From the NCBI GenBank assembly GCA_033220425.1, contig CM065650.1:4712001-4776000 (forward strand): a stretch of 64,000 nt of DNA, written 5' to 3'. This document shows positions 4,822-63,404 of this stretch, in pieces. The stretch's first letter is position 1. Every line of letters starts with the position of its first letter. The stretch comes from Lepraria neglecta (lineage: Eukaryota; Ascomycota; Lecanoromycetes; Lecanorales; Stereocaulaceae). Both the position numbers and the translations under genes were made by a program. Below the pieces are notes generated by a model. The model had not been told where the DNA came from, searched no databases, and saw only the letters and a program-made list of their open reading frames with translations.

Positions 4822-6617
4822 CTACTTTCGCCTCCGCACCATGATAGTGGTAGTCTGGGATGGGATGAAGCTGTCCCCAAAGGCTCGATTGATAGGGCGC
4901 TTGGCTAGCGGCTTTATATCGTATGTCAAGGCTATGTATGCTAGCAGCAGTTTGAGTTGGTGAGCAGCAAACCATCTTCCGGGGCTGACGATCATTAGTG
5001 GACCCGTCGGAGGCGGTGAGGGCACTAGAAGGGTCGTTTTCTTTTACTTACCAAGAATGCCGCCCATATCCGAAAGCAAAATAGATATCGCTGGTTGTGG
5101 AAAGACCTTGCAACTTTTGATTCTTCGAAGGGTTTCCGGCTTGGGCGTCTCTGGTAGGGGAAGGCTCTTTCATGGCTCTGGCAAATCGAAGGGGTCATAT
5201 TCGTCGGGATTGGGATAAAATCGTTCATCATGATGCAAGCTGACTGCTGGAACTCCCAGCCAAGCTCCTTGGGGGACGTGATGTCCATCAGGCAAATGCA
5301 GACCCTCTTTTCGCACCACCTCTCGCAGTACCATTCTTGTGAGCGGTGGGCTCTTGCGCAAGGTCTCTCGTAGGGTACTGTCTGCGTACGACAGCTTGGC
5401 CAGGGAAGACAGCTCGACCCAATCTTGCTCTGTTTGGAAGACAGCTGCTGCCTCTTCCTGAAGACTTTTGTAATATCGATGGTCTGGGTCAGAGCTCAAG
5501 AGATCGTAGAAAGTGTTCGTTGCTGTCATGATTGTTGTATGAATGGCGCCTAGTGTCTTTTGGGGGTCATTAGTGAGTCATCGGAGACGACAGGAGTCTT
5601 TGACAAGGCTTCTTTGAGCAGATCGGTCCATTTGAATTCACAAAGAACAACATGCGCTCTGCAAGCGCCTCAGGTTTGCTGGCGCTGGTGCCAGGGTTAT
5701 CCAAAACTGCGTTCGTCATCCAGGTTATCATATCCTTCGGCTCGTCAAAGACGAAAGATGGGTCAGTCCTCTTCCGCCGAAGGTTTCCCATACGCTCCTT
5801 GAAAACGGGAACGAGATATCCGAAAGCGTTCTTCTTCTGGATGTAGATGGGAATCGCCGCGAGATAGCCAAAGAACGGCTTCAGGATCGACGGCATGAAT
5901 TGGCCAACTAAGATTGCACTGGCTCCCAGCCAGTTAGCAAAGGATGCGGATGACCGGAGGTAACTTTCATCTCGACAAAGCGGGGATCCAACAAATATCC
6001 GATTGGTCGATTTGAAGACGATTTTCTGCATTGTCTCAAAGAGGCATATCTCGTGCCAGCTGTCGTTATCCAGGCCCATGAGTTCGTCAATACTCTCACG
6101 CAAGTCGTTGAACACGTCACCTTGCAATCTACCAAGGTTCCGCGTGAGATCCTTGCGGACGACGTCTATCATGAACAGATCGTGATTAAAGTCCAGGCCT
6201 GGCAATAGATAGTCGACTGCAAATCTGCCAATCTGTGGAAGCCGCACGGACAAGGCACTCTCTGGCTGCTCTACCATCCAGCTTATATGCTCCTGAGGAA
6301 TCATAACTTGGGGGCGGAAACTGGGATCTTGGACCACAAATGGTTGTCCTTTTTTGTTGTACTGCAAGAAAATATTGTCAGAATTGGCCAGGACAAGGGG
6401 AAAACTAAAGACTTACTTGGTCGTAGCCCACTGTCAGGCTTCGTAGGCCAGCAAAAACCTCTCGGAAACATGCCCTGGCATTTGGAAAGACTTCCTCGCG
6501 GCTCCCAGCCCATTGCATTGAGAGGGGCACATTGTTCATGGTCCTCCAAGATCGCCAGAGATGCGTTATGGTGCTTACAGTGAAGCCGAAGATCACTAAA
6601 ATGGGGAGATAGTCCAT
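4822..6617 (-). pseudogene. Cytochrome P450 (ent-kaurene-oxidase-like), frameshifted
   Basis: Heme-thiolate monooxygenase. Four exons are readable: the N-terminal membrane anchor MDYLPILVIFGFTVS; an intron at 6362-6416; a large exon with EHISWMVEQPES and FDEPKDMITWM; an intron near 5545-5630 leading to the I-helix AIHTTIMTATN; then the ExxR helix ETLRKSPP. The heme loop FAFGYGRHSCPGRWFA is complete across the last intron. Between YPNPDEYDPF and that loop the frame slips: about 5187 reads DPF then a wrong frame that stops, whereas adding one base restores RFARAMKEPS into the heme exon. As written, the protein ends before its heme cysteine. This is either a true one-base deletion or a sequencing error. 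The family resembles fungal terpenoid P450s (CYP68/CYP503-like), subfamily not determined. The first ATG is at 6617; the frame is open a little upstream. Confidence 0.85.
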
Positions 6618-6641
6618 CTTGTTGCTAGAGATAAGTCGCAA

Positions 6642-7674
6642 CCCTTTGTGCTTTCAATTGTGGATAAGTAAGCAAAGACTGCTTTGGAAAGACTGATGAG
6701 ACTTCTTATTCGATTGTAAAGGAATCTGTAGGCAATTTGAGTGAGCTCGTTTGCAAAGAGACTTTCTTCGAAGATTGCGATGTGCGGCTTTCAAGGATAT
6801 GCCCGGCCCTGGATACTGCAGGTGCCATTGGCCGTCGCGTACCAAGTTCTGCTGGGCTGCTGACTGGTGGGTCATTACATCCTACCCTGGGACCATCCAG
6901 ATAGCGCACCTTGAGACCCTTATGGGGCTGGGTGTGACTTCACACCTGGCACCGGGCTCGGCGAACAAAGAAGGCTGTCTGAGCTTGTAAGTGGATGGTC
7001 GTGAATGTGCAACATGAAACCTCTGCACGCTACCATAGTTTTGCGGTCAATGCGCCGAGAGCCTTACAACTCAGCATCTCTGCTCTGGGGTCCTAGACAT
7101 AAACCCTGAAAGGACTGAGCATTGTAGGGTGATTCCGAGCGAGCATTTCTAATGCTACCATCGATCATGGTGGATCATGGTGACAATAGTGGATTGGGAG
7201 CAGAGCCCGATAAAGTTTTCATGTGTTTGGGATCAGCTCATCACCTATGAGAACCGAGCAAGACCTTGCGGCGTCATCCAAAGATAGCGGTTGTATGTAG
7301 ACTGAGGATCGGAGCTTTAACCTTCGTTGTGTGGGCATATCGTATCACTTCATTACAATCGCCGATACTGTCAACCTTTGGTCCACGAAGTGGAGGTGAA
7401 GAGGCAGTTTGACGCCTCAACCACAAACTTCGTGCTCGAAGTCTCTGCTTGCTAGCGAAGCAAGGCTCGAGAGACCTCGTGAAGACGACGTCAGACTAAA
7501 GGGTGATTTCATCGAGTCTACCACTATGAAGTACACATTGACGTCCGCTCTCCATTGTGCACTCGATCTTTATTCGTCGTAATAGCTCTGGGGAGATTCT
7601 TGCAGAGCTATTAAAGGATACCCTATGGGAACACTAAAAACCTACTTGAATTCTGGGACGGCTATCTAGTTGGA
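6642..7674. other. Intergenic, no gene recognised
   Basis: Non-coding by inspection; stop codons are frequent in all frames and no motif was recognised. Confidence 0.45.
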
Positions 7675-10371: not shown

Positions 10372-10381
10372 CTTTGAATAA

Positions 10382-10987: not shown

Positions 10988-10990
10988 CAA

Positions 10991-12236: not shown

Positions 12237-14013
12237 TTACGCACCGACACCCTTGATCAAGTCTGCCGCTCTCTCAGCGACGGCATACACCGTGCTCATT
12301 GGGTTCGCCTGCGGGATCACTGGAAATATGCTCGCATCGACAACCCGCAAATTCCTCGTGCCATACACAACCAAATCTTGATCCACAACGCCACCTTTCT
12401 CCCTCGGCAACATAGCTGCGGTGCCGCATGAGTGATACGTCGTCACAGCGTTCTCACGCAGATATTTCCGTGCCGATTCGAGATCCGTAACAGCGGTGTT
12501 TGGAGGGATGCATTGGCCGTCCTTCTTGAAAAAGGCGCTTAGAGGGCCCGTCGAGGGAAGTTTCTCGAGAGTAAGTAGATGATAAGCCATGATCTCCAGG
12601 TCTAGAGGGTTGGAAAAGAAACGAGGATCGATGCGAGGCTTGTCATCTGGGTTTGATGATACGATATGAGAACTCCCACGCGAAAAAGGCATACTCTGCA
12701 TGACACCGAGACTAGCAAAGTTAGGTAGGCCGATGAAAGTCATAAACATGCTGCAAGAAGCTTCATCAGGGCTGTCGAAAATGGCGCGCACGACATCGTA
12801 GAAGTCCTTCTCGTTGCGCGTTACAGGCGGTGCGTTATCGAACGTCTCTTTTTGCTGTGCGCGATCCTGAAGAGGCAGACAGGCCAATGATTGAATGCCG
12901 TCCCCAACTTTGACACCCTGGTCGAGCTCGAATGTGCGCATACACATGACATGGTTTTGCAGGTTTTCACCCACATTGGCATTCTCGATAACAAGAGGAA
13001 TATCGAGATTTCTGAGTCGGTTCGGCTCACCCACACCGGACAGTTCAAGCACTTTTGCACTGTGGAAGGCGCCAGCTGATAAGATGACTTCTTTGTTCGC
13101 CGTAATCGAATAGGTCTCGCCATCAATGGACACCTCAACACCCTTCGCAACGGTCTTTGCTGGTGAAGAGCCCGAGAACAAGATTTTGAGAACTGTTGCC
13201 TCTGTGATAATGGTCAGGTTAGGGCGTTTGGAGGCGGGCTCGCCATATTGTGAGTCTGCAGACATTCGTTTCTTTGTCTGTGGGTTAATAGCAGCTGTGT
13301 AGCATCGATTGCCTGCACTCTGCGTGGGGAAGAGGTCAGCTGTTGTTTTGTAACCCATGTCTCTGAAAACTTCATTCCAAGCTTTGGCCATGGGGTTTTT
13401 TTGGGCAAGGCTGGGAAAGGACACTTGAATTGGACCATCAGGAGAAGCCGGTTTGTCGGTGTCGCTGACATGGTCAATGCCCATAGCCTTGCAAATACTT
13501 GCATCAGGAGGCTGGATTGAGTATGCTTTCTTGTAGTATGGAAGAAGGGCGTCGTAAGTCCATTTTGAGTTTCCCAATTTCGCCCAAGCGTCAATACCGG
13601 TCTGGGAGGGTGCAATAAAGGCGGAACCGTTGATCGTGGACGAGCCTCCCAAGGCTTTGCCTTGAAATTGCTTTTCTCCGCGATCATTCAATCCGGACTG
13701 TGGAATTTTCCGATCTGATTAGCTTCCTGAGAATGTAGGTGTGATATGCTGTCGGACTTTCAGTCGAAGGTTTTCCATAATCACGTACTTGCGATACGGT
13801 CTCAAGCTGCCATGCAGTCTCCGGACCGAGTAAGCTCGTCCAAGCACTAGGATCTTGGACCGTGGGATCTTGGGTGATGCTCTTTCCGCTTTCCAGAACT
13901 AGTATCTGTGTATCTGGATCTTCTGAGAGCCTGTTTGCAAGTACCAAGCCAGCTGTACCGCCGCCAACAATGACGTAGTCGGCGGCTTTGGGAACTGGTC
14001 GAGTAGTAGCCAT
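12237..14013 (-). CDS. GMC-family FAD oxidoreductase
   Basis: Glucose-methanol-choline oxidoreductase of about 570 residues, two exons. The start [20 protein letters not shown] at 14013 gives the N-terminal FAD dinucleotide fold (GGGTAG, then LVLESG). An intron (GTACGT to CCACAG) near 13700-13790 joins ETVSQ to [20 protein letters not shown], the first GMC signature. The second signature lies near [17 protein letters not shown]. The C-terminal active site reads YHSCGTAAM (catalytic His), with Asn in [10 protein letters not shown] as the second position. No secretion signal is seen, unlike secreted aryl-alcohol oxidases, so intracellular action is likely. The frame is intact. It is next to the EthD and UbiA relics, which fits oxidative tailoring of a cluster product; the substrate is unknown. 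Confidence 0.9.
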
Positions 14014-14295
14014 ACTTGTGCAGTGTACGTTAGTTGGAAGCAGTGAGGTAAGGTTCTGCCGGATAAAGGCGGAAGGCGAGGCAGCTACTCTGTATCTTAC
14101 TTTAGGGTCGGGAGTTATTTGCATTTGCTTGCAGGAGCGGGGAAACCTAATCGGCCATCCCAAGGTCACGCTATGGTAGCCAGGTACCTTATTGGCCAAA
14201 CATTGTGTTATGGATTATATGTAATACCTTACACTACCTACCTAACCAGACACGCTCAGTGGTAAAGTAGGTTCATGCTACGGATAGGAAAAGGA

Positions 14296-14320: not shown

Positions 14321-14392
14321 TATCAACTGATTTTCACCTATTCACTCATTCATTCAATTTTCCTCCTTTCAAACCTCTTTCCCAAAGACTCC

Positions 14393-14780
14393 ATGTCGTA
14401 CTCAATCGTCGCCTTTCTCTGGCGCAAACCCGGCCTCACCCCCCGATGAATTCCGTCACTACTACGAAACAACTCACATCCCCCTCCTCCTCACTCTACT
14501 GGGCCCCGCATTCCCAAAATCCCACACCCGCTTCTATCTCCCCCGCCAGCTCTCCACCACCTACTCGGCAGATACATCCAATGCGAATTACGCGCCCACC
14601 ATCTTCTTAGGCAACACGGATGATTTCGATTACGACGCCTTTGCTTCCATCGTCTTTGCGGATAAAGCTGCCTTCGATGTGTTCTATACGCGCTTAAGAG
14701 ATCCTGATACTGCCAAGGTGCTGGGGGAAGATGAGGATAAGTTTTTGTGGAGGCAGAAATTGCACTCCGAAGCAGCATAA
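14393..14780 (+). pseudogene. EthD-domain protein, frameshifted
   Basis: A single exon of about 128 codons starts MSYSIVAFLWRKPGLTP at 14393. After a run of six C (14439-14444) the frame hits a TGA. With five C it would continue DEFRHYYETTHIPLLLTLLG, the classic EthD ferredoxin-like dimer motif, through FLGNTDDFDYDAFASIVF and end LHSEAA at 14780. Family members act as small dimeric lyases, dehydratases or decarboxylases in fungal aromatic pathways (mdpH and tpcL type) or are of unknown function. The break could be a real insertion or a homopolymer read error. The gene is divergent from GMC and convergent with UbiA. Confidence 0.8.
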
Positions 14781-14955: not shown

Positions 14956-16457
14956 CTAATGACAGAGACTGAGGTTCGATTTCAAATAGAACATGTCCCA
15001 AATTTTCAAACCTGCCTCTCCTAGAATACCTGTAAGGATGATGAAGAGAGAGGATACGAGATACTGGACGCCAGGGGAAGCAGGTAAAGCATTGCAGTCC
15101 ACAAACACCATAGCTTCCACGATCGACGGTCCTCCTCTTTCCCCCGCTCCCACAGAACTCGGTAAGTAACAGAAAAGCCAACCGCAATTGGCAAGATCCA
15201 AAGACCCCAAAACAGTGTACAAGCAAAAGACCAGGAGAGAACAGGTACGACTATTGTCCATCGGGCCATTGACTCTCCCAAGGCTAAAGGAGCCGTCTGT
15301 CTTCCACGTGTACGGTCACCCTCTTGGTCCTTAAGATCCCGAACTTGCATCGTGGTGAGAATGACGGCGCTGATCACTGCAGTCCAGCCGTACGCTCCAC
15401 TGCTCAGAACATCCTCAGCATGGCCAGAGGCTCCGCTCGCGACTTTCAGAGAGCCTAGGTTGTAGAGAAAGAATGCGAAAGCTATAATGAGGTTTCTGAC
15501 CAGCCAGTTGTCGTCGCCGCCTCTCAGATCGTTATAGATCCAGGTCAAATTAAATAGTAAAGCCGTCTCCTTCCACACGCTCAGCACGCAATTCAAGAGG
15601 AGGACCAGCGGCATAGCAATCAGCATCAGATACCGCGTCTGCCGCTGGCTTATCCTACCGGTGGGGAATGGTCTTCATGGCTTGTTGATCATGTCATCTT
15701 TTGATTGAATCGAACAATCTTTGGTTTGCGAGGCCAAAGATTAGGAGATTGGACCAGTTGAAGACGAGAACGAGGGGTAGACGCTGAAGAACGGCGTAGA
15801 CGTGCAGATATTGTGGATGGCCTGCGAGAAGACGTTTCGAGAGTGCAGCGGAGATCCCAAAAATTGTGTTTGGAAGAACGAATGTGTCGAGATCATCTTT
15901 TGTGAAAAGCCAGAGGGTGTGCAGGAAGCCAACGAAGGTGGTGAGGTATGTGCCTGCACTCGAGGTGCCAAGGACCACTTTTTCTTCAACTTCCGCTGGT
16001 TTGTTAGTGTTCTCACTCCTGAAGCTATACACACCGGCACAAGTGGATATGTAAATAGATGCTTGGGCGGTCTAACGCCAGGGCTAGCAGGCCTAGAAAG
16101 GCTACAACAGGTGCCCCAGCGCTAGAAAACTCCCATGCCTAGGCGGCATAGACCTGGAGTGTACATAGGCTATATATAGGCTATGTATAAGGTGCGGGTG
16201 GGCGGGAAAGAACTGCTATGGCTCTGAAAGAGATGAACTCGACTGAAGAGCCAACTGCTGGTGGGATGCTCATACAAATAGTGCTCTCAGGAAGCACGGA
16301 TCTCTCGCTATGGCCCATGGTCATGGCGCATGGCTGAAACCGCATCTGATCATGAGACACACTAACCCACAGTCCCACTGTAGCGAATAGTAATGGAGTC
16401 TTGTGCCCCATTTTCTGTTTCAGACACTGACTCTTGTCCATGGTCTCGGACACTCAT
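14956..16457 (-). pseudogene. UbiA-superfamily membrane protein (Fma-TC type), broken
   Basis: Integral membrane prenyltransferase or terpene cyclase. Hydrophobic helices are evident, together with LTWIYNDLRGGDDNW and the second aspartate motif DLKDQEGDRTRGRQTAP. The region from FLHTLWLFTKDDLDTFVLPN to NQRLFDSI is typical of the fungal subgroup that includes the fumagillin cyclase Fma-TC. Three lesions are seen. A 383 bp repeat (16004-16386) separates the first exon part (ATG 16457, MSVRDHGQESVSE) from TNKPAEVEEK. An A-run (15699-15702) is one base long and shifts the frame after FDSIK. The conserved Trp of the NKPWRP motif is TGA (15675-15677). A short intron near 15020-15055 gives the C-terminus SILGEAGLKIW. 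Cyclase versus transferase activity cannot be decided. Confidence 0.8.
16004..16386 (+). repeat. 383 bp dispersed repeat, copy 1
   Basis: Almost identical to 58667-59049, with only a few differences, for example TGTACATAGG against TGTAGATAGG. It starts TTAGTGTTCTCACTCC and ends CACTGTAGCGA. No coding capacity, clear terminal inverted repeat or certain target duplication is seen. It sits inside the 5' coding part of the UbiA gene. Confidence 0.9.
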
Positions 16458-16480
16458 CTCAACGAGTGATCATTCAGTTG

Positions 16481-16619
16481 TTGCAATATGGCAATAGGCT
16501 GGGAAGGATGTCTAGCTAATGGGGCCCCCCAGGGCCCCATATATGGCCAAAACAGATAAAGAACGGCTAGCAGCAGGCTTCTGGAATCGCATAGAAAGCA
16601 ATCAAGTAAGGGATTGCAA
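16481..16619 (+). mobile_element. 139 bp MITE, copy 1
   Basis: Begins TTGCAATATGGCAATAGG and ends GGGATTGCAA, with 7 bp terminal inverted repeats TTGCAAT/ATTGCAA. The centre is GC-rich (GGGGCCCCCCAGGGCCCC). It is about 95% alike to copies at 19383-19521 (opposite strand) and 42040-42177. Flanks share only a loose duplication here. Non-coding. Confidence 0.85.
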
Positions 16620-17180
16620 CATCAGTGATCCTGCTACAAAGCTAGAGCCAAGTCTAAGGTCCAGTAGAAGAAAAGGCCGGCACAGGAAGCTGCCGTGTTA
16701 CGACTAAGCACTGTAACTTATACTAGAGTAGTTCCTGTAGTGCATTACCACCACTCATTCTGTATACCGCTGCGGGATTCGAAGTCTCCCATGGAAAATA
16801 TAAGATTCACGATGCAATTGGCGAGGCTCTAGGTAAATCAATTGGCCCATTTCAACGATTGGACTTGCAATACATAGCTTGTTGGTACTTTAACAAGCTT
16901 TCAGTACTAAGCAAGACGAGTTGCGTGCTTACCTTAGTTTTTGGCTCCCAAAGCTTGGTGTCCAGTGCCTAGTGTCTAGCTTAGAAGTTGCTTCTAGGAA
17001 GCATCCCGATCCTTTAGTTCTAGCGGTGCTCTGGGTCGAAGCGCCCTAAACGCTCCCCCCTAAACATTCGAGATAAATACGCTGGTCGCCGAATTGTGGA
17101 GTACTTATCAATAATCAAACCCTTTGCTTCTCTCAACCATCCACCACCCACCTTTACGCTTCCACAAACATATAACAACT
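16620..17180. other. Upstream region of the SDR gene
   Basis: Non-coding by inspection. It contains the SDR 5' leader (CT-rich around 17120-17165) and nothing else recognisable. Confidence 0.5.
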
Positions 17181-18364
17181 ATGCAACCACCATTCCCCTC
17201 CCCAGTGCTGACCTGGCATAACGACACTTACGCCGCTATCTCGCCCCTGCGCGCTGAGCTCAGCAGCGCCGGGAAGACCGTCATTATCACTGGTGCTGTG
17301 AGTCTTACTCCCGCACCGCGCTCATCTCAAGCAGAAACTGACAGATCATCTATAAAGGGAAGTGGTATTGGCCGCGAGACAGCTACAGCTTTCGCTGCTG
17401 CTGGTGCTAAACGCCTCGTCCTGATTGGCCGCACCAATTCCACCCTCGCTCAGGCAAAAGACTCTCTACAAGCGAGCAGCAAAAGCAATACCTGCTTGAC
17501 CTTCCGCGCCGATATCACCGACGACAAGGCAATGCATCAGATCGCCGCTGAAGTAGGCACCTGGGACATATTCATCCTGAACGCCGGCCACCTACCCAAC
17601 CCCACCTCAATTGCATCCGCCAATCTCTCAGACTATTGGACAACCTACGAGGTCCAATCCCCCACCGTCCCCTCCTCTCTTCCCTCCGTACTTCCAAACC
17701 AACCCCTTACATAACTAACAATACCCTTACCCAGACGAACGTAAAATCTGTCATCATAGCCGCCACCAGTTTCCTCCCCACGGCCAACAAAACGCACGCA
17801 ACAATGCTCGGTGTCACAGCCGGCGCCCTCGTCTTTCCCCCCGCCGGTACGCCTGGTCTTTCGGCTTATCTGACTTCGAAGATCGCGATGGTGAAGACGC
17901 TAGAATTCTTAGCTATGGAGAACCCAAGTGTTTTCGTGGCCAGTGTGCATCCGGGGATGGTCGATACGGGGTTGTTTCGGAAGTCGGGGGCGAAGCCGGA
18001 GACGATGCCTATGGATTCTGGTGAGTTCGTCTATATATTATTGTTGAATTGCATGGAATGCTTAGATTGTATTCTTTTTCCTGTTCTTGGACTTTGTGAC
18101 TAAAGGACCAGAAATCTCCCCTTTTTTCCTCCCCTTTTTTCCACGCGGAATCTATGATGCTGATTTTACGTATCGGTTCTTCCAGCAACATTGTCCGCAC
18201 ATTTCATGCTGTGGCTTTCTAGTCCCGAAGCGGCTTTCTTACGTGGAAAATTGGTGTGGGCGAATTGGGATGTGGAGGAGTTGAAAGCTGTTGGGTCGAA
18301 GATACGAGAAGGCTCCCAAATGACCATCGGTGTTGAAGGGTGGCCATTTGTAAACATGACATGA
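17181..18364 (+). CDS. Short-chain dehydrogenase/reductase (SDR A)
   Basis: NAD(P)-dependent oxidoreductase, four exons, intact. The start MQPPFPSPVLTW is at 17181. The nucleotide motif TGAGSGIGRE is assembled across intron 1 (GTGAGT to ATAAAG). Later come RTNS for cofactor choice, FILNAGHLP (the NAG motif), and the YxxxK pair in LSAYLTSKIAMVK, followed by VASVHPGMVDTGLF. Intron 2 (GTCCAA to ACCCAG) joins TTYE to TNVKSVII. Intron 3 (about 18020-18185) joins MDS to ATLSAHFMLWLSSPEAAFL. Stop at 18362-18364. Length is about 305 residues, cytosolic. This is the classical SDR type common in fungal clusters; substrate unknown. Confidence 0.88.
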
Positions 18365-18719: not shown

Positions 18720-20220
18720 CTAGCGTGGCTCGGCAGAGACATCGTACTCACGTCTGACAGTAATCGCATCTGGCCTATCGCTCCTTTTATCCCCATGAAT
18801 ACCGGTAACGAAATCTTCTTCCTTCCTCGTGCCCTCAGCTTTCCCCCCATGTTGAACGTCGCCGAACCCTACGAGGCTCTCCCCATCAAGCCGACTGAAT
18901 CCCATTCTCTGCAACGGCACATCGCCACCGCTGCCGCCAATCGTCTGAATGGCGTTCTCACGACTACCACTCGGCGCGGCAAGTTTTCGACGTGAGGAGA
19001 GGAGCCTGGAGAATGCGGGTACGACCAGTTTAGAGGCTATTGGCGCGAGCGTCGGTAGGCTTGCGCCTATAATGCCCAGCCATATCTCCAGGTGGCTTTG
19101 TAGTGTGATGAAGTAGAGATGGTACAAGGCGTCCGAGCTTTTTGTTGCTTGGACTGTACTCTGGATCCTCCAGGCCATAATACCTATGGTCCTGGTTTAG
19201 ATGTTAGCCGTTTGGTTTGCCGGATGCATGCATACGGGGTGGATCTAGCCTAGTGCGATGAAAAACTTACAGAAGACCAAGGCTGAACAAGAAGCTCACG
19301 CCTATTTTCCTTCTCAAAGGCATCTGCAGGGTCCAGATCGTCGGTAATGGAAGCGTGATAATCACCAAGTTGAGAGCCATTGTTGCAATCCGTTGCTTGA
19401 TTGCTTTCTATGCGATTCTAGAAGCCTGTTGCTGGCCGTTCTTTGTCTGTTTTGGGCATATATGGGGCCCTGGGGGCCCCCATTAGCTAGATATCCTTCC
19501 CAGCCTATTGCCACATTGCAACAGCCATGCTAATACTGACGGAGGCATACTCCCCGTATTGAATCGGCTTGCAATGTCCGAGCGTGGGGTTCCATGATGC
19601 CGCGAGCGGTTTGCACTGTGTCATGAAAATAGAAATGAAGACGATAGCGTAGGAGAGGCATGCGCCCATCAATGTGTACGAGATCAATCTGAATCGTCTC
19701 CTGGTGAAGATTATATTGTAGAAGGCTAGCAAGGCCATTTTGCAAAAGACTGGTGATTTTCGAGCTCCATGTGGCGGAGAGAACCAGCTGTGATTAATGT
19801 GAGCTGTGGGAGTCTTCAAACAACGGGTTTTGGAATAGGAGCCTAATCTTGGCTTGAACGATCTTTTGATGTGTGTCCAGCTGGTACCCATGCGCACCCA
19901 ATCCATTGGCGATAGCTGGTGGAGTTGAGTGAAGGATATGAAATCGCAAAAACTGCTTCTGACTTATCCCAAACTGTCGCGCCTTCCAACGCGAGGAGAG
20001 AACTATGGCACAGGTGAGCGAGATTGCGCCCAGCAAAGCGCTACCAATTTCACGGTGAACGCACATATACCACTATTATGAAGCTATCATCAAGCCGGAA
20101 AGATCTCTGCTGGAGGCGCGCGGCATAGAATCGGAGCGCGAGTATGGTTATTAGGAGGATGTTGAATGCGATGAGCCAGGCGGTCATAGACCAACCGCGA
20201 GGAGAGACAAAGGCACCCAT
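18720..20220 (-). pseudogene. Fungal rhodopsin-domain membrane protein 1, MITE-disrupted
   Basis: PTH11/SAT4-like integral membrane protein (Rhodopsin_fungi family, seven helices). The N-terminal helix starts MGAFVSPRGWSMTAWLIAF at 20220, with FRLDDSFIIVVY after it. ANGLGAHG, FCKMALLAFYNIIFTRRRF and FMTQCKPLAASW are the usual conserved blocks. The helix VSISMA is then cut by a 139 bp MITE (19383-19521), and the gene resumes LNLVIITLPLPTIWTLQMP. The last exon carries LYHLYFITLQSHLEIWLGI and a long polar tail ending at 18720. The 5' exons also do not join cleanly around 20030-20070. Such proteins are frequent in fungal clusters, but their biochemical role is mostly unknown. Confidence 0.75.
19383..19521 (-). 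mobile_element. 139 bp MITE, copy 2 (inside rhodopsin gene 1)
   Basis: Inverted relative to copy 1, with the same TTGCAAT/ATTGCAA ends. The disrupted codons read ...ATGGCT before and ATGGCT after the element on the gene strand. This direct repeat of at least 6 bp fits a target-site duplication. Removing the element plus one repeat gives continuous SISMALNLVIITLP. Confidence 0.85.
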
Positions 20221-49774: not shown

Positions 49775-51350
49775 ATGCACGATGACATCATAGTTTTTAA
49801 ACAGGATCGGAACGTCTTGACTGAGAAATCTTCCGGCTCTCTTTTGGACAGTTCATTCGCGTTGCTGACTGCTTGTGGGTTCTATAAAAATTTCCCCCTC
49901 GACGCTTCTGAAGATCATGGACGCTATATCGCATCTCTGTTGAAAGACATTAGTACTTTAGAAACCCAGACGAAAAATGTTTATGCCCATGAAGCCGTTC
50001 GTGCCAAGATGTTACAAGCCACGAAGAGCCTGGTCAGCGCTCTCGAAAAGCCCGGGGATGCTGTATTCCACAATGCTTTCTTGGTAATTAATTCCCTATC
50101 GTTTCAGAGGATCGAGTTGGCCTGCTAATAATTTTCTCTTCTAGCTAGTCCAAAGTACGTGTGTGAGAGTGGCCGTCGACCTCGGTCTCTTCGAGTTGAT
50201 AGCGCAAGAGAAGCAGGACAAGAGGCCAGTGACCGCCAAGGAACTGGCGGCTCAGACCTAGGCAGAGCATTTACTAATCGGTATTAATGGTTTTCTGACA
50301 TCAGGAAACAACATCTAAAGTTCTGAGTTAGTCCGTATCTTGCGAGTCCTTGTCGGTGTAGGATTTGTCGCCGAAGTCGAGAAGGAAGTATACACTGCCA
50401 CTCCTCTGACGATACAAATGACCCGTCCAGCATATCAAGCATGCATTAGACATCAGTAAGTCTCTATCAACACGAAGTTCGCCCCAATTTGTGCGAGTGC
50501 AGTGGACCGCTAACCTCTCCTCACAGCTTTGACTTTGGAACCCGTACCCTCGCGCAATTACCCGTCTGGTTCAAAAGCAACGGATGTCGATCGCCCACCA
50601 GCGTGACTTCTGGACCCCTCTAGCACATCTTCACCACCGATCTCCCAAGATTTGAATACTGGGCGGCCCTTCCGGGCGATGTATTGCAGAACTTCAATAC
50701 TTACATGACAGGCAACAGAAGCAGCCGACCAAGCTGGATTGAGTGGTTCCCTGTAGAGCACAACGTGCTGCGAGGTGCCAAAGAAGATGATGGTGCTGTG
50801 CTGATCTTTGACGTAGCTGGCGGTCGCGGACATTACCTCGAGACTTTCAGACAAAGATTTCCTGACGCCAAGGGGCGGATGATATTGCAAGGCCTACCAC
50901 ACGTAATCAGTGACGTTCAGGACCTTGACCCTCGGATTGAAAGTATGGCGCACGATATGTTCTAGCTGCAGCCTATCGAAGGTATCTAGTTCCCCCACGT
51001 CCTCCTCACAAATCAATCATCATCTCAAACTGTGTTAGGAGCCCGCGTCTAATTCCTCTATTTCGTCCTGCATGACTGGTCTGATGCCCTCGCCGCCTAG
51101 ATACTCACACACATCGCCGCGGCAATGGCACCCGGCTACTCAAAGCTCATTCTCGGCGAATTCATTCTGCCGGATACGGGCGCACCGTTTTTAGCCTCTG
51201 GATTCGATTGGCAGATGATGGTGCTGCATTCGGGCATGGAGCGGTCGGAAGGGCAATGGAGAGAGCTGATTAAGGGTGTAGGGCTGGAGACTGTTGGCTT
51301 CTGGCAGGGAAAGGAAGGGGGAGGGCATCATTGAGGTGGTCAAAAGAGGT
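49775..51350 (+). pseudogene. O-methyltransferase (COMT type), multiple stops
   Basis: Plant-type/fungal SAM O-methyltransferase. The N-terminal dimerisation part is visible (DISTLETQTKNVYAHEAV, ALEKPGDAVFHNAFL, VRVAVDLGLFELIAQEK). The winged helix reads LVRILRVLVGVGFVAEVE. SAM motif I is VLIFDVAGGRGHYLETF, later PRIESMAHDMF, then the catalytic His in YFVLHDWSD and LILGEFILPDTGAPF. In-frame stops: TAG at 50259-50261, 50621-50623 (Gln-like), 50963-50965 and 51098-51100 (Gln-like), and TAA at 51050-51052. The C-terminal end runs close to 51350. Substrates in this family are usually phenolic hydroxyls of polyketides or aromatics. With five stops there is no active product. Confidence 0.85.
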
Positions 51351-55267: not shown

Positions 55268-57586
55268 CTACGCGGACGGAAAGCTCTTCGCTATAATCAG
55301 CTCGAGAAAATAGGCCACATTGAGCAGGACGTCATTCCAACTGAGGTGCTCGATCAGGCATTTCATGTGAGGTGGTGAGTCTAACATGCCAAGAAATACC
55401 ACTTTGTAGCCAAGTTTCTCAAGTCTTTTAGCAATCTCGCAGGCAACTGTCGATCCTAGCGAGTACCCAGCAATGGCATATGGCCCGTGAAGCTGATGCC
55501 GCGTTATGTTATCAACGTAACAATTGGCGATGTCTGCGATGGAGGTGAAGTAGTCGCTATAGTTGATGTCTGTGTTGAGCCCTCGGGTCCGTAATCCGTA
55601 CACTGTACGATCGGAGAGATATTTAGCCAGCACGACGAAGACTAGCACGTCGCCGGAGCCAGGATGGACGAACTACAACGGCGATTTACCACTAGTTGGG
55701 TTGGAATGAAGGGGTACGACTGGATCGTATTGTGCGCTACGTTCTTGATTAAGCCTTTTCACTTCGCCGGCAATTCCGCGTATCGTTGGTGTGGTCAACA
55801 ACAGGCCGACTGGCATAGTGTGGATGAGTGCAAGACATTTCTCCAAGAGTCTTTTGAGACTAAAGAGATCCGTCGATGTAATGCCAAGGTCGAATATGCT
55901 GTTGTTGACACCGAGTTCCTCTTCTGGGACATCTACAACATCCTGTACCGCATTCAGTATTGTATTCTCGACGGCGGTCGCTGGGTCTTCGCGGCGTGCG
56001 ACCTTGAACTTTTTGACATGGATGTCTTTGGCATCCTCGTACTGGTCAAATAAGTTGTCCTCAAACGAAGCTCTGATTTTCGCCCGTGATATTTTACCCA
56101 AGGCAGACTTCTGGAGGAAGATTTTGGCAAAGGTATGGTGTGTCTGGGCCGACAAGTCATACACATGCCGACCATAAGAGCGATTCTACTAGCGGTTTCA
56201 ACCCTTCTCGCAATATCTTTGGGATCGAACGTTGGGTGATAAACGACACAAAGTTCTTCGCCCTGCGATCTGGGTGGCCTGTAGGAGAATACCACCGTGT
56301 AAGACGGCGTGAGTCCTGCAATGTTGGCGCTTTCCAATGCTGTCTCGATTTCGTTGGGAAAATATTTAACACCATTCAAATTTATGGACTCTTTTTCCCT
56401 TCCCGCAATGTTCAGGTTGCCCTTTTCGTCAATGTAGGCCCTGTCACCTGTGGTGAACCAGCCGTCATCCGTGAACGATGCTGCCGTTTCTTTGGAATTG
56501 TTAAAGTATTCCCGGAACACAAGACTGCCAGTGATTTGCAGATCGCCAATATTGCCGCACGTAGCCTCGCATACTATGGCATCTGCAATCCGCATATGAA
56601 TGCCAGGAACCGGCTCCCCCAGAGAAGCAAAGGAGTTGCCTCTCTTCAAATCGTATGTTGGGCAGCTTTTGCTATAGATGCACTCAGCGCAAGTTTCAGT
56701 CATTCCAAATCCAGGCCGAATGAACTCGACGCGGAGCCCCTGCTCTTGAAGAACCCTAGTAAGAGCAACAGCAGTCTCGACCACGTTCGACTCGCCTCCT
56801 GAGATGAGATGCCTCAAGCATGATAAGTTGAACTTAATTTGCGAATCAACCGAAGTGCCTATGCTTTGCAGTAGACGAGCAAGGAAGAAATGCGGAGCAA
56901 ACGTATATGTCACCCGGTGCAACTCTACGAGTCGCAAGAACTCGAGAGGATTTGCAATGACAGTGGAAGCAGGGACATGGACAAGCTCTGCTCCCAGGTA
57001 CATGGCATGCATATGAGTCTCGATCATGCTTGCGACGTGATCGAAGCCAATCCAGTTCAGAAAGACGTCTGTCGCCGTCGTTGCGAAGAACGTACTCTTT
57101 GCTTCGATGGATGCAACGATCTGCTCGTGACGTAGGACAACAGCCTTCGCGTCGGAGCTCCCGGATGTAAGCATCAGTGTTGCTGGGTCCAGCGGAGATT
57201 TATCTCTGCCAGCAGGCTCACAATCTTCGTCGTTCTGGGCAGGCTGGAAATGATCTACAGTATGTAAGTCCACATTCCGAACACCTCGAAAGTCCTCGGC
57301 TAGGTCGTCTGAGGTGAGTATGCTGGGTTGCTGAAGCATATCACGGACAACGCTCTTGATGGTCTCGGTGGTCTGGTTTCAAACGCAAACCGGACCAACT
57401 ACGAGGTTTAATTGGTAGGTGGTCTGGTTTAAAAGTCAAACCGTCTAAACCATTAAAACCAGTAGTCACTAATGGTTTAAATGGTTTAAGGGCGGGGACA
57501 TTAGAAAGGAGCCGCATCTCACCAAGTTCTGGTGTAAATTGCACCAAAATCGGGTGGGAAGTCGCTCAAGCTCGGATCGAGTTCCC

Positions 57587-58556
57587 TTACAGTCGATTGC
57601 AGAACCATTGGCGCGAGAAAATCAGAATTTTGGGGGGCGCTCCGGGGGTAGGGAAGGCGGGCGAAATGGGCCAAAATTTTGGAAAACCAGCTATACAGTA
57701 ACAACCAACGCTGATCCGGGGGCCTAGTAAACGGGGAATTCAAGCGCCTATCCAGCTTTATTAGGCCATAAACTTTGTATATCTAATGCAGCGTTAGACA
57801 GCCATCGTAAAGGCGATTCTATGATTTTTTTATTTTTTTTGTTGATTCGCGCTAGTATAGGGCTGAAAAGTAAACAAAAAAAATCAGATTTTTAACCCTA
57901 TTTGCGATGGCTGTCCAGCGCTATACTATATATATAAAGCTGATAGCCTAATAGAGCTGGACGAGCCTATTAATCACCCGTTTACTGTAATTTCTACGCA
58001 GCGTTGGTTGTCGCTGTACAGCTACTTTTCTAAAAATTTGGCCCATTGCGCGCGCCTTCCCTACCCCCAGAATCCCCTCAAATTCTGATTTTCTAACTGC
58101 TCGGCGCCAACAGCTTTGAAATCTACAGCATATCAACAACCAACGCTGCTCCGGGGGCCTAGTAAACAGGCAATTAGCGGGCTCGTCCAGCTCTATTAGG
58201 CTATCAGCTTTATATATATAGTACAGCGCTGGACAGCCATCGCAAATAGGGTTAAAAATCTGATTTTTTTTGTTTACTTTTCAGCCCTACACTAGCGCGA
58301 ATCAATAAAAAAAAAAAATCATAGAATCGCCTTTACGATGGCTGTCTAACGCTGTATTAGATATACAAAGTTTATAGCCTAATAAAGCTAGATAGGCGCT
58401 TGAATTCCCCGTTTACTAGGCCCCCGGAGCAGCGTTGGTTGTTACTGTATAGCTGGTTTTCCAAAATTTTGGCCCATTTCGCCCGCCTTCCCTACCCCCG
58501 GAGCGCCCCCCAAAATTCTGATTTTCTCGCGCCAATGGTTCTACAATCGACTGTAA
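57587..58556. repeat. 970 bp foldback (near-palindromic) element
   Basis: Outer arms TTACAGTCGATTGCAG (57587) and CTACAATCGACTGTAA (58541-58556) are inverted complements. Inner arms match too: 57883-58022 pairs with about 58130-58266. The loop region is about 58022-58130. Runs of T at 57827-57840 and of A at 58305-58318 face each other. The relic at 7675-8130 belongs to the same family. Non-coding. Confidence 0.85.
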
Positions 58557-58666
58557 TGATTTTAAGTCACAATTCGGCTGTATTTGCCAATACCGCCGAC
58601 GAGGTATGCGATAGCGATACCACGAAATAAAGTATACAGAAACACCCCTCGGGGTTTATAGACATC

Positions 58667-59049
58667 TTAGTGTTCTCACTCCTGAAGCTATACACACCGG
58701 CACAAGTGGATATGTAAATAGATGCTTGGGCGGTCTAACGCCAGGGCTAGCAGGCCTAGAAAGGCTACAACAGGTGCCCCAGCGCTAGAAAACTCCCATG
58801 CCTAGGCGGCATAGACCTGGAGTGTAGATAGGCTATATATAGGCTATGTATAAGGTGCGGGTAGGCGGGAAAGAACTGCTATGGCTCTGAAAGAGATGAA
58901 CTCGACTGAAGAGCCAACTGCTGGTGGGATGCTCATACAAATAGTGCTCTCAGGAAGCACGGATCTCTCGCTATGGCCCATGGTCATGGCGCATGGCTGA
59001 AACCGCATCTAATCATGAGACACACTAACCCACAGTCCCACTGTAGCGA
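58667..59049 (+). repeat. 383 bp dispersed repeat, copy 2
   Basis: Matches 16004-16386 with very few differences. It interrupts a sequence whose uninterrupted form (ACGTCCTAAACAACACC) is seen in the related element near 23110. This shows that it is a later insertion, with at most a 2-3 bp duplication at the join. Confidence 0.9.
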
Positions 59050-59149
59050 CTAAACAACACCGGCGTGTATCTGGCTTGTAGATAGATAAATACACAATAG
59101 CATGTCGTCGCCCTGAGCAAAGTTGATTGATTAATTGATTGATTTATTC

Positions 59150-61060
59150 ATAAGACCCCGGTTCACCCTCCTAGGGGCGAACTATGCGCTCATTATGTAA
59201 TCTATCTAACTACGACTCGGCCAATCAGACCTCGCCGCCGTCTCAATCATCGTGTTGCTTCCCTGTAGCCCAGTAGTATAGCTTGTTCTACGCTCTAGTC
59301 CCTTTTTGGTGCTCGTATCGTTCTTATTAACATCTGCCCCCGCGATCCAGTCGTTTTAATCCTCGTCTAGGGTCTTATACTGCCCTAAAAGCCCTGTTTA
59401 CCTTATGAAAATAGCTGCTTTTACTATATAGTCGGTTAGTAAGACCTTATAGCTGAGGTATACTTTCTGTAGCTCCTCCCGCTCCTTTTTCCAGAACTTC
59501 CTCCTCTTACTATTATATAGTCTATACGTAGTAAGTATATAATTAGCTGTCTGGAGTCCGTTTTTGTAATCGTATTACTCCTCCCCTACCCCCGGTACCT
59601 ATCTACTATATAGAAATCTTCTAAGCCCTATCTTTTCTGTTCTTATTTAAATAATCAATAAGCTTATTAACTTTTTAAGGCCTTTATATATCCTAATAAT
59701 CCTAGGGGTCAATACTAGTTAGATAATCCTAAGTAACCCTCCTTTAGTCTCCTTGGCCTAGTCTATTACCTATTTATTTTATATATCTTTTTTAATTTCT
59801 TTCTTTATAGCTACTATTAATCTCTTAGAATAAATTAATAGCTTTACTATATAGTCTATATCTTCTTTAATAATCCTTGCTCGGTATTTATATTATCTTT
59901 ATCCTATAGTATACTTTATAGCTTTATCAGCTACTTCATTCCCTATAAGACCCTAATATACTAGTATCTAGTATATTACTAGCTCGTATCCTTCCGCTCG
60001 GACGTGGTTAATAAGTTTTACTATATCTCTGATTATTATTTGGCCTGACGTATATCCTAGTTTCTAGATTATAGTAATCGTAGCCTGGTTATCGACGAAG
60101 ATATATACTTCCTAGCTCGCTATTCTTTTAAGTACTATTATCGATAGGGCGAGAAAAATTCCGTATAGCTCTACTAAATAGACCGTATACTAGCTATCTT
60201 TCCCTATATACGCCTCAGCTCTACCCAGCTACGGTAAGACCGTAGCCGAGCCTATTTTCTTATTAATCCTACTCCCGTCTATAAATATGGTTATATATCC
60301 CTTTTTCTCTATATTTCGTACCTGATTTATAGCTTCGTCCCTTAAGAGTATACTAGTTCTAGGGGGTTCCTAATCTGGTAGTACGCTATAAAGGTAGATA
60401 GTCTCTATTTCTTTTACCAGTCTATACCTAGATTCGAATATTCGAGTTAGTATTTCTAAAGGGCTGATTTTCCTTGTTTTAGAGATTCTTTTCCTCTTAC
60501 TAAGTATCTATCTCAGGTAGATTATATCTTCGTATACCGGGCCTATAGCTATCCTTAGGGTTAATTCTATTACTAGTTTCTCTAGGGTAAACTTTATAGG
60601 TAGTAGGTACGCTTTAATATTTAATACTGCCTATAACGTAGCTCTAAAGGCCCCTGTAATATATCGTACCGCTCTTATTTATATATTTTCTAGTGTACTT
60701 AGTATACTTCTATTATAGCCTTTATATTCTTCTAGAGTATACTATACTAATAATCTATATATAATTTGTAGAAGTACTATTACCTTATAGATTTTTCTTA
60801 AACTAATATAATTACCCCCTAGATCGAGCCTGAAATCCTTGCTAAAGCCCCTATACTCTTTACTACTCTAGCTTTAAGGCCTTCTACTTGTTCCTTCTAG
60901 CAGAGCTTTTCGTCTATTATAAGACCTAGATATTTAGCTATTGATTTAGGACTGATTATCTGGCCTGGCAGATATATCTATTATATCTTATCGAATTTGT
61001 TCTTCCTTGTAAGATGAATAAGCTGATATTTGGCCGGGGCCCTAAGCAAAGTTGTAGCAC
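59150..61060 (-). mobile_element. Truncated LINE (RT/RNase H part), RIP-degraded
   Basis: Minus-strand translation gives the C-terminal part of a Tad/I-type LINE ORF2. A reverse-transcriptase thumb-like segment reads IAKYLGLIIDEKLC, then GLKARVVKSIGALARISGS and LENIQIRAVRYITGAF. The RNase H domain follows with YIFVDNQATITII and NEVADKAIKYT. TAG and TAA codons occur at Trp- and Gln-like positions throughout, and AT content is very high. The 5' RT core is missing. It sits inside the composite hAT-like element. Confidence 0.85.
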
Positions 61061-61640
61061 ACTCTTTTAATTCTGCGGGTGAACCCCGGGTATAGGGCTA
61101 GGGCTACTAACCTTTTTAGGCAACTCGCTAACCCGATATAGCTGAAAATCTACTCCTCCAGGCCTTGGCGGTTTAGGTGGTTTCAACCACCAACTATATA
61201 AGTCAGACCGTCTAAACCGGACCATTTAAATCCCAAACCGGACCAACTACGAGGGTTAAAAAGGCAAACCAACCACCTAAACCGCCAAGAAGTTAATTAG
61301 TTGGTTAACCATCAAGAGCGTTGATCACGGACATGTTCTAGATGGCTCAGACATCGATTCTGGTCTACAGGAAGCGGTGTCGACACCGCTGGCACAAGAC
61401 CAGCAAGCACCACGGCCCAGAACCACTGGACACTCTCTTGGAAGGATCCGAAATGCAAGAAGACCACGCTCCCACGCTGAGTGTTTCGTATGGATTGAAT
61501 TTGTCTCGCTTTGATCAACGTAACCTTGAGTAGCTCTTGGTATGTTATATGCTTGTAGGATTTACCTTCCCGATCATTGTACAGAACGATCCTGGATGAT
61601 GACCCAGCTGCTTAATAGAGCCAAATTAGTCACTTTTGAG

Positions 61641-62451
61641 GTAGGACTTGCTGGCGAGAGCATGGTCCCAGGCATTCTCGTTTGTATAGATGTGACTCGA
61701 CCGTTTTAGAAACAGGATCTGACTGCTAAGATTCAATAGTGGACCTACAGCTCTTTAAAAGTCTCCGAGTTGACTAGGGATGAACTAAGGAATGTGCACA
61801 TCCCGTGCGTAGATTACGTCTCAGATTGATGAGAGTAGGAGAGACACCCATCATCTAGGAATAACGGCCAGTGATTGGCATCGAAGTGTATGAATGGCTA
61901 TTCAATTAGATACTAGCGCTCTAGGGCACCTTGATACGCACCACGCGTGCAGCTAGAGTATTACTGCTACAGATCAGCGACATAAGTAGCTGTTGTTACA
62001 GGTGCTAAAGAGTCTCTCATGTTACCGGGACTGACGGCATGAGCTTTATTGGGTAATATGCTTCTAGGGTTTATTACGGTTCGGTAAAGGGTGTGTAGAT
62101 TGCCGGCTAAACTTGCTGCTTAAATAGCCTTTCTAGCATACGTACATACAGTATGACCTATTCACACGGCGAGGAGCTTGATAGGCAACTACTCATGTAA
62201 TTGATCAGCATTAATGACGTATAATCTAGCTATCAACTACGTATTAGGTAGCACAGCCCCCGTAGGATGTTTCTTACCGCTTCTTCAGGGCCACATTAGG
62301 GAACAGCAGTGCCGATCGTTCGGGATCTTCAGTATATCCATTTAATCTCGCATAGGGCTGCCACTCCCTCACTACGACCTTCTAAACTCAGCTCAACTAC
62401 TTGAACTATTGCCACTGCCCGAGTGTCCATATAATAGCCACTATCATATCT
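61641..62451. other. Divergent region, NRPS-like and methyltransferase relics
   Basis: Upstream of both genes; no further coding sequence recognised. The exact starts of both neighbours are lost or unclear in this stretch. Confidence 0.45.
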
Positions 62452-63404
62452 ACGGAAAGAGGGGGTTATTATGGGCCCAGTACTTTTGAAGGAAAGTCAC
62501 AAGTTGATCCCAACACGCGTCCAGCCTGGTTCACCGAAGTTATTGATTCTATTCCTGACATGGGAAGGCGATTACTCAAAGACTATAGCGGTATAGCGCC
62601 AGAGCAAGTATTGCCGCACGTCATTCACGTTGTAAGCACTCTACTGCCCCATCTTGACAATGATTTCATATGTTCTAATCTAGAGCTTAGCGAGACAAAG
62701 CGTTCGATATCTGGTCATACGGATGCATCGGCCAAGTCAGGTTCCTTGACTTCACTCTACCAAAACTTCCATACTGGTCCCAAGTTCTTATACGACTCCG
62801 CGCAGGTACGACCTTTATCGATACTAGCTGTTGCTTTGGCCAGGAGATCCGTTTCTTAGTGTTCAATAAGAAGGTGCCCGCTATACAGCTTTACGGGTTC
62901 GACTTGGAACCCGCGTTCATAGATATGGGCTACAAGCTATTCCAGGATCGGGATAAGCTTCATACGAACATGCTTTCCGGAGACGTACTAGCAGACCCAA
63001 ACTCGCCAAGGAGCGAAGATCTTACAGCTCTAGAAGGATTAATAGATATTGTTCACGCTGCCTCGCTCTTGCATTGTTAGGGCTGGGATGACATGATCAC
63101 GGCAACAAAGCGGCTCATAACGCTCACTCGCAAACAGCCAGGGTCTATGGTTATTGGCAATCAAATGGGCAGTCTTGACACTAGCCAATATGCTATGCCG
63201 ACTGGCAAGGGTTTCAACTATCGTCACAATATTAACAGTATGGAGCATTTCTAGAATCAGGTAGGGGAAGAGATAGGCTCGAGCTAGAAAGTGGAATCAG
63301 ATATGTTTTTGCCCTTAGTGGTCAAGGAAAATTTAGAGCAGTCGTAGGCTAAGTCGGACCCAAATCTTCGGATGATATGGTTCTGCGCAAGGCGCACATC
63401 TTAG
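62452..63404 (+). pseudogene. AusD-like SAM methyltransferase, RIP-type decay
   Basis: Matches the fungal methyltransferase family that includes AusD of the austinol pathway. The N-terminal block is GGYYGPSTFEGKSQVDPN, then GRRLLKDYSGIAPEQVLPHV. The core is damaged from about 62640 to 62860, where SAM motif I is lost. It resumes QLYGFDLEPAFIDMGYKLFQ, LHTNMLSGDVLADPN and IDIVHAASLLHC, with GWDDMITATKRL, GSMVIGNQMGS and LRMIWFCARR ending at 63404. Four TAG codons stand where the family has Trp or similar (63078-63080, 63252-63254, 63285-63287, 63345-63347). No credible ATG remains. Related enzymes methylate polyketide or terpenoid carboxyls; here no product is possible. Confidence 0.8.

What the first reader, a model, noticed from the sequence alone, without database searches (positions are those of the whole stretch)
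4822..63404. A very large secondary-metabolite cluster caught in the act of dying
At least 19 metabolic or membrane genes sit together. About 12 are broken by independent events, while GMC oxidase, SDR A, rhodopsin 2, P450 3, SDR C and BBE 2 keep clean multi-intron frames. If the pathway were simply lost, the intact genes should decay too, so either loss is recent or the survivors have another use. The tailoring set is rich and unlike any cluster I can name.
Basis: partly seen in the sequence, partly recalled or inferred. Interest (0 to 1): 0.75.

Follow-up and report, generated by a model that had tools for sequence, protein, structure and literature searches.

The report
Dying fungal metabolite gene cluster
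Near the end of a fungal chromosome lies a large set of genes that probably once built a small molecule; most are now broken by mobile DNA and small mutations, and the few intact ones are roughly what chance could leave, so it is a good example of a known kind of gene loss.

Summary
The window lies in a 42.0 Mb genome (8 large contigs, 3 small), 157-221 kb from the end of contig C5. Between 4.8 and 57.4 kb I find 18 metabolic or membrane genes; 12 are broken. I read at least 32 lesions: 19 in-frame stops, 9 frame changes, 3 repeat insertions, one gene end cut off by a repeat. The only core synthetase found, an adenylation-thiolation-thioesterase enzyme, lacks the front third of its A domain and has two more lesions, so the pathway should not run from this locus. 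Counting genes with a single small frame change as sequencing errors strengthens the excess (P = 0.011 to 0.002). Chance survival is plausible, not proven. Partly decayed fungal clusters are already described. dN/dS, synteny and expression could not be tested: no fungal relatives are held.

The parts
4822..6617 (-). P450-1, broken: a single small frame change near 5.19 kb; rest reads cleanly with three introns
   Evidence: Read; one of 69 pieces in 3.7-12 kb matches p450 at 3.7e-19, by its ExxR motif probably the piece 5173-5577, which was not scanned singly
12237..14013 (-). GMC oxidase, intact, 561 aa, one intron
   Evidence: GMC_oxred_N 23-217 of 218 and GMC_oxred_C 1-139 of 139; spliced frame without stop; nearest solved relatives glucose oxidase-type GMC enzymes
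14393..14780 (+). EthD-domain gene, broken: a single small frame change near 14.44 kb in a homopolymer run
   Evidence: EthD 4.7e-16; frame change read
15021..16071 (-). UbiA-family gene, broken: one frame change and one in-frame stop near 15.7 kb
   Evidence: UbiA 1.6e-16; whole-genome profile search passes one TGA here; read
17181..18364 (+). SDR A, intact, 291 aa, three introns (one non-consensus donor)
   Evidence: adh_short 1-192 of 195 at 1.1e-28
18723..20220 (-). Rhodopsin-like membrane gene 1, broken by a solo LTR at about 19378-19523; possibly a further frame problem near 19.8 kb
   Evidence: Fung_rhodopsin 2.7e-11; repeat family; insertion site read
21436..25171 (+). P450-2, broken: short tandem duplication, further frame changes, two in-frame stops and a repeat of about 1.7 kb at 22.7-24.4 kb
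   Evidence: p450 positions 288-378 (just above the cut-off)
25450..30546 (-). PDR-type ABC transporter, broken: six in-frame stops between 26.68 and 29.19 kb; both ends clean
   Evidence: ABC_tran, ABC2_membrane, PDR_CDR, ABC_trans_N pieces
31456..32789 (+). Rhodopsin-like membrane gene 2, intact, 394 aa, three introns
   Evidence: Fung_rhodopsin 2-235 of 237 at 1.2e-16
33116..34161 (-). SDR B, broken: a single small frame change near 33.88 kb in a homopolymer run
   Evidence: paralogue SDR C matches it in two frames that meet at its residue 90-92
35378..37136 (-). P450-3, intact, 547 aa, two introns
   Evidence: p450 46-436 of 462 at 2.3e-51
38162..39065 (+). Cupin-domain gene, broken (two adjacent stops near 38.32 kb unless spliced out; frame change and stop near 38.97 kb)
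   Evidence: Cupin_2 2.9e-6; the least certain of the twelve
39251..40314 (-). SDR C, intact, 333 aa, one intron
   Evidence: adh_short 2-136 of 195, below the cut-off
40832..42511 (+). BBE-like FAD oxidase 1, broken: three in-frame stops at 41.78-41.90 kb and a solo LTR at about 42036-42182
   Evidence: FAD_binding_4 1.7e-17 and BBE 1.1e-4
42997..44138 (-). Rhodopsin-like membrane gene 3, broken: at least two in-frame stops; assigned by reading only
   Evidence: no rhodopsin match of its pieces
47245..49172 (+). BBE-like FAD oxidase 2, intact, 528 aa, six introns
   Evidence: FAD_binding_4 1-138 of 139 at 9.4e-26
49775..51333 (+). O-methyltransferase, broken: at least three in-frame stops
   Evidence: Methyltransf_2 (best 4.2e-4) and Dimerisation (0.033) pieces, below the cut-off
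55271..57343 (-). Core synthetase A-T-TE (NRPS-like), broken: front third of the A domain cut off by a repeat, one frame change near 56.1 kb, one in-frame stop near 55.67 kb
   Evidence: AMP-binding from profile position 137 of 384, PP-binding and Thioesterase; repeat at 57344 onwards
16477..16621 (+). Solo LTR (third copy), between UbiA and SDR A, 5-bp target duplication
22700..24440 (+). Dispersed repeat inserted in P450-2, RIP-like base composition
   Evidence: (83 matched stretches, of which one is the query and one lies inside it)
44682..46852 (+). Pogo/Fot-like DNA transposon between rhodopsin 3 and BBE 2
   Evidence: 49-bp perfect inverted repeats at the ends, DDE_1 piece 2e-6; family name recalled
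57344..64000 (.). Repeat and AT-rich block that ends the cluster on the right

Best explanation
It is a secondary-metabolite gene cluster near a chromosome end that has lost its function and is decaying neutrally. Shown: 18 co-located genes, 12 of them broken by at least 32 lesions of several kinds, including the only core synthetase found and the UbiA gene. Inferred: in life, the A-T-TE enzyme would have joined two aromatic alpha-keto acids, and the UbiA enzyme, P450s, GMC and BBE oxidases, SDRs and O-methyltransferase would have prenylated or cyclised, oxidised, reduced and methylated the product, with the ABC transporter exporting it. After selection stopped, transposable elements, point mutations and small indels struck the genes more or less at random. 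The six intact genes are mainly those not yet hit; they need no new function, though one or more may have kept one.
For: Gene set and domains. Lesions. Random placement of 32 lesions by gene length leaves 3.9 untouched genes on average, 6 seen, P = 0.13. Lesions are of mixed types, and RIP-like balance is found mainly in inserted repeats and the right end (TpA/ApT 1.07-1.28 there; 0.63-0.88 in most other segments, exceptions 0.93, 0.97, 1.03 and 1.10). Repeats inside genes are members of dispersed families, the short one with LTR-type ends and target duplications. Own-genome searches with pieces of the A domain, GMC, UbiA, P450-3 and with SDR C listed no other match above 55% identity, so no close twin of these five was seen. 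Left flank: 8 gene models, 10.6 kb coding, no break found (whose finder is insensitive).
Against: The summed length of untouched genes is higher than a uniform rate predicts (P = 0.015). If EthD and SDR B, each with one small frame change only, are sequencing errors, 8 of 18 are intact and P is 0.011; with P450-1 as well, 9 of 18 and P = 0.002. No pathway regulator and no intact relative was found to prove the genes ever formed one pathway. Shared 7- and 8-mers upstream are no better than shuffles; CGG-N7-CCG is in 5 of 17 upstream regions, N1 and N12 spacings in 4 each, against shuffle maxima of 3, over 13 spacings tested.
Confidence: 0.72

Rival explanations
1. The pathway is dead but the six intact genes, or some of them, are still under selection for another task, for example as a small oxidation and reduction kit acting on foreign or other host compounds.
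For: Their summed length free of lesions is more than a uniform rate predicts (P = 0.015); splice sites and several catalytic motifs are kept; for the three searched, no close copy was listed that could replace them (best over a long stretch 46% for P450-3 and 50% for GMC, with 49% and 55% over short ones; 33-41% for SDR C). SDR A, rhodopsin 2 and BBE 2 were not searched.
Against: The number of intact genes alone is unremarkable (P = 0.13); motifs are kept in broken genes too (P450-2 haem stretch, thioesterase motif); SDR A has a non-consensus donor.
Confidence: 0.2
2. Much of the breakage is error in the assembly or reads.
For: Three genes have a single small frame change each, two of them in 6-base C runs.
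Against: 19 in-frame stops and 4 repeat events are not homopolymer errors; 9 C/G runs and 5 A/T runs of six or more bases sit in open frames of 21 control gene models, although those models were chosen by being open; eight neighbouring gene models on the left show no break.
Confidence: 0.05
3. The locus was never one pathway: it is a mixture of two or more clusters or a graveyard of unrelated genes collected at a chromosome end.
For: No regulator found, no firm shared promoter motif, stretches without a recognised gene at 6.65-12.2 kb and 51.4-55.2 kb, repeated gene types (3 rhodopsin-like, 3 P450, 3 SDR, 2 BBE); UbiA and A-T-TE were not seen together in the listings of my paper searches.
Against: Gene types are those of biosynthetic clusters, and they lie close together over 12-51 kb with no other recognised gene than a transposon between them.
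Confidence: 0.2
4. Repeat-induced point mutation leaking from neighbouring repeats killed the genes.
For: Strong RIP-like balance right of the window and inside the inserted repeats; two 1-kb segments in the ABC region reach TpA/ApT 1.03 and 1.10; 13 of the 19 counted stops are TAG, 4 TGA, 2 TAA.
Against: Most gene segments do not show the RIP signature; a 1.15-kb stretch of the ABC gene has no close duplicate in the genome (one 73% match of 149 bases); stops that I read at Trp positions are split evenly between the RIP and the non-RIP form (3 and 3; by reading).
Confidence: 0.07

Closest known systems
Bikaverin cluster in Botrytis species
   Same: A fungal cluster found in various stages of decay, some species with only a few pseudogenes left (review PMC4347624, passages read)
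   Different: There a functional cluster is known in a rare isolate; bikaverin being a polyketide is recalled; here no relative could be compared
Fusarielin-like cluster 4 of Aspergillus fumigatus strains
   Same: Several genes of one cluster carry distinct frame changes and stops (PMC5711037, passages read)
   Different: That is polymorphism among strains of one species with functional alleles; here one genome, and transposon insertions as well
Non-reducing NRPS-like (A-T-TE) enzymes such as AcyN (ascocorynin) and TdiA (terrequinone)
   Same: A-T-TE domain order without a condensation domain (PMC9047271, passages read)
   Different: 'UbiA' does not occur in that paper; the acyN cluster described there is small; this locus has a far larger tailoring set and a dead core enzyme
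Two relatives of the A domain in the same genome (C8:3059506 and C1:1693876)
   Same: 47% identical over the A-domain piece, in open frames of 788 and 958 aa
   Different: Elsewhere in the genome and apparently intact; their other domains and neighbours were not read

Membership tests
Degenerate secondary-metabolite gene cluster | Several biosynthetic genes side by side | tested here: met
   18 genes in 4.8-57.4 kb (rhodopsin 3 by reading)
Degenerate secondary-metabolite gene cluster | Independent disabling lesions in several genes, core gene included | tested here: met
   12 of 18 genes, at least 32 lesions
Degenerate secondary-metabolite gene cluster | Descent from a cluster that is intact in relatives | not testable with these tools
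   The search tool holds no relatives of this genome
Degenerate secondary-metabolite gene cluster | Relaxed selection (dN/dS near 1) | not testable with these tools
   Needs relatives or other strains
Non-reducing NRPS-like synthetase (A-T-TE) | A, T and TE domains in that order, no C domain | tested here: met
   AMP-binding from position 137 only, PP-binding, Thioesterase; no condensation domain among the families listed for 59 pieces
Non-reducing NRPS-like synthetase (A-T-TE) | Activation of aromatic alpha-keto acids | tested here: inconclusive
   Closest solved A domains are McyG (4r0m) and 6ulx/6ulw; that these activate phenylpropanoid or keto acids is recalled
UbiA-family prenyltransferase or terpene cyclase | UbiA domain | tested here: met
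   1.6e-16; which of the two activities is not testable here
LTR retrotransposon solo LTR (inserts in rhodopsin 1 and BBE 1) | TG..CA ends, 4-6 bp target duplication, paired copies elsewhere | tested here: met
   TG..CA ends and 5-bp duplications for two of three window copies; the BBE 1 copy has a changed first end and a 4-bp duplication; six same-strand pairs 0.6-2.1 kb apart among 40 listed matches

The most novel reading that the evidence does not exclude
Decay is selective: the core and its transporter died, but a six-gene oxidoreductase and membrane-protein remnant is held by selection as a stand-alone detoxification or conversion module, a step from biosynthetic cluster to catabolic kit.
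Probability: 0.12. Interest if true: 0.6.

Novelty: new member of a known kind. Interest (0 to 1): 0.3.

Why it matters
Clusters in mid-decay show in what order and by which agents a fungal pathway is lost. This one has about 32 countable lesions over 18 genes, enough to ask whether loss is gene-blind, and it joins a UbiA gene to an A-T-TE synthetase, a pairing I did not find in the listings.

Tried and rejected
My own gene finder, trained on 5 core stretches, the 8 P450 loci and the left flank, was too weak for these genes and jumped over stops with false introns; a variant that may pass a stop or frame change at a cost found 1 break in the window and 0 in the controls, so it is insensitive. 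I therefore read translations by eye. I first took EthD and the cupin gene for intact and corrected this after a closer look. The idea that the short element in rhodopsin 1 is a spliceable intron-like element was dropped: it has LTR ends, a target duplication and no acceptor at its end. RIP as main cause was dropped. A monooxygenase suggested by NAD_binding_8 is, by reading, the front end of GMC. Own-genome searches saw no twin of five genes. Family searches of the genome score only the best candidates: one search listed P450-3 but not P450-1 or P450-2, and (AMP-binding, 15 matches) did not list the window's A domain. Promoter motifs gave nothing firm; 3 of the 17 start positions fed in were not ATG and the A-T-TE gene was left out. 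Paper searches were seen as listings only and not followed; one listed paper on fumonisin and AAL toxin clusters (PMC12821873) may bear on cluster decay.

Counting caveat: coding lengths and lesion numbers fed to one search are my estimates; the two adjacent stops of the cupin gene were counted as one; possible extra lesions in rhodopsin 1, the cupin gene and the O-methyltransferase were left out. With 24 or 20 lesions the P for six or more untouched genes is 0.51 and 0.78.


Full report
Setting. The window is C5:4712001-4776000 of a 42.02 Mb genome in 11 contigs. Eight contigs are 4.49-6.29 Mb, which suggests eight chromosomes; that this is a filamentous ascomycete, perhaps an Aspergillus, is my inference. 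The window ends 157 kb from the right end of its contig. G+C is near 0.48 up to about 58 kb and 0.40-0.44 beyond; the right flank has blocks down to 0.30 and a mostly RIP-like dinucleotide balance. The left flank holds eight gene models without a detected break.

Gene set. I cut the window into stop-free pieces and scanned them apart with Pfam: 10 single pieces in each, and 69, 62, 52, 54, 64 and 59 pieces (some pieces are in both kinds). In order: P450-1, GMC oxidase, EthD, UbiA, SDR A, rhodopsin-like 1, P450-2, PDR-type ABC transporter, rhodopsin-like 2, SDR B, P450-3, cupin, SDR C, BBE-like 1, rhodopsin-like 3 (by reading only), BBE-like 2, O-methyltransferase and, last, an enzyme with AMP-binding, PP-binding and thioesterase domains. 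No polyketide synthase, condensation, terpene synthase or fungal transcription-factor domain is in the lists returned; the pieces were pre-filtered by length and coding score, so small or poor pieces were missed. A methyltransferase and an aldo-keto reductase at 0.1-2.5 kb look intact in my gene models and may or may not belong.

State of the genes. Reading translations, I find 12 genes broken and 6 intact. Minimal lesions per gene: P450-1 1, EthD 1, UbiA 2, rhodopsin 1 1, P450-2 6, ABC 6, SDR B 1, cupin 2, BBE 1 4, rhodopsin 3 2, O-methyltransferase 3, A-T-TE 3; total 32, namely 19 in-frame stops, 9 frame changes, 3 repeat insertions and 1 gene end cut off by a repeat. The intact genes splice to open frames with GT..AG introns. 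Domain cover: SDR A 1-192 of 195, rhodopsin 2 2-235 of 237, P450-3 46-436 of 462, BBE 2 1-138 of 139 of the FAD domain, GMC both domains nearly whole; SDR C matches only 2-136 of 195 and below the family's cut-off (22.8 against 26.6 bits), as do the pieces of SDR B (22.2 and 20.5 bits).

Support for lesions beyond my reading. Pieces on either side of one ABC stop match the solved transporter CDR1 at residues 895-940 and 942-995, so the stop takes the place of one residue. The UbiA profile runs through one TGA at this locus. SDR C, used as a probe, finds SDR B in two frames that meet at its residue 90-92. The short insert of rhodopsin 1 and BBE 1 belongs to a family of which 40 matches, the query included, were listed at 94-100% identity (199 candidates, 40 scored); two of three window copies have TG..CA ends with 5-bp target duplications, the BBE 1 copy a changed first end and a 4-bp one. 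The 1.7-kb insert of P450-2 belongs to a dispersed family: 83 matched stretches, one the query itself and one inside it. The remaining lesions rest on my reading and recalled family patterns.

Why six survive. I spread the lesions at random over the genes in proportion to length. With 32 lesions the mean number of untouched genes is 3.9; six or more occur in 12.7% of trials; an untouched length as great as the 7.9 kb seen occurs in 1.5%; a chi-square test against one rate gives p = 0.083. With 24 lesions the two figures are 51% and 16%. If EthD and SDR B are treated as intact, 8 untouched genes have P = 0.011; with P450-1 as well, 9 have P = 0.002. In 21 control gene models 14 homopolymer runs of six or more bases sit in open frames, which speaks against frequent run-length errors; the models were, however, chosen for being open.

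How it died. The lesions mix repeat insertions, in-frame stops and small indels. RIP-like balance is found mainly in the inserted repeats (23-25, 44-48, beyond 56 kb) and the right flank; two 1-kb segments in the ABC region reach TpA/ApT 1.03 and 1.10, so a weak effect there is not excluded, but a 1.15-kb stretch of the ABC gene has no close duplicate in the genome. The most likely course is loss of selection followed by ordinary mutation and transposition next to a repeat-rich chromosome end. The order of events is unknown.

What it made. The A domain is closest among solved proteins to McyG and to 6ulx/6ulw. A-T-TE enzymes characterised so far join two aromatic alpha-keto acids (PMC9047271, passages read). 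Two relatives at 47% identity lie in long open frames elsewhere in the genome, so this chemistry may not be lost to the organism. The UbiA relative could be a prenyltransferase or a membrane terpene cyclase; the latter idea is recalled. The product is unknown.

Known or new. Decaying fungal clusters are described: bikaverin in Botrytis (PMC4347624, passages read) and pseudogenised clusters in A. fumigatus strains (PMC5711037, passages read). I file this as a new member of that kind. I did not find a published cluster with this gene combination (listings only); most subscription papers are not held.

Noticed in passing
window 44682-46852: DNA transposon with 49-bp perfect inverted repeats at its ends and a DDE_1 transposase piece, degraded and AT-rich, between rhodopsin 3 and BBE 2.
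   Followed up: partly
window 16477-16621, 19378-19523, 42036-42182: A short LTR family (about 150 bp) with 40 listed matches in the genome at 94-100% identity; six same-strand pairs 0.6-2.1 kb apart suggest very short LTR elements (TRIM-like, name recalled).
   Followed up: partly
window 16004-16303 and 58667-58966: A 300-bp stretch that overlaps the front end of the UbiA gene and its upstream DNA is repeated at 99% identity in the right-hand repeat block.
   Followed up: no
window 57587-58556 and 7676-8127: Nested inverted and direct repeats (up to 253-nt arms, 97% complementary) at 58 kb, with related copies at 7.7-8.1 kb.
   Followed up: no
G000:C8:3059506-3060792 and C1:1693876-1695117: Two relatives of the dead A domain, 47% identical, in long open frames; other domains not looked at.
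   Followed up: no
G000, whole genome: The genome is rich in UbiA-family genes: 16 matched stretches, 14 of them above the Pfam cut-off, the window's one included.
   Followed up: no
window 3770-12151: One of 69 pieces matches a MYND zinc finger (1.1e-4) and one KIN17 (0.011); their places were not found.
   Followed up: partly
upstream regions of 17 cluster genes: CGG-N7-CCG occurs in 5 of 17 regions of 600 bp, N1 and N12 spacings in 4 each, against shuffle maxima of 3, over 13 spacings tested; a possible trace of a shared regulator.
   Followed up: no
L027 (G000:C1:3000001-3010000): G+C 0.394 and strong RIP-like balance (TpA/ApT 1.37) in mid chromosome, perhaps a centromere or repeat block.
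   Followed up: no
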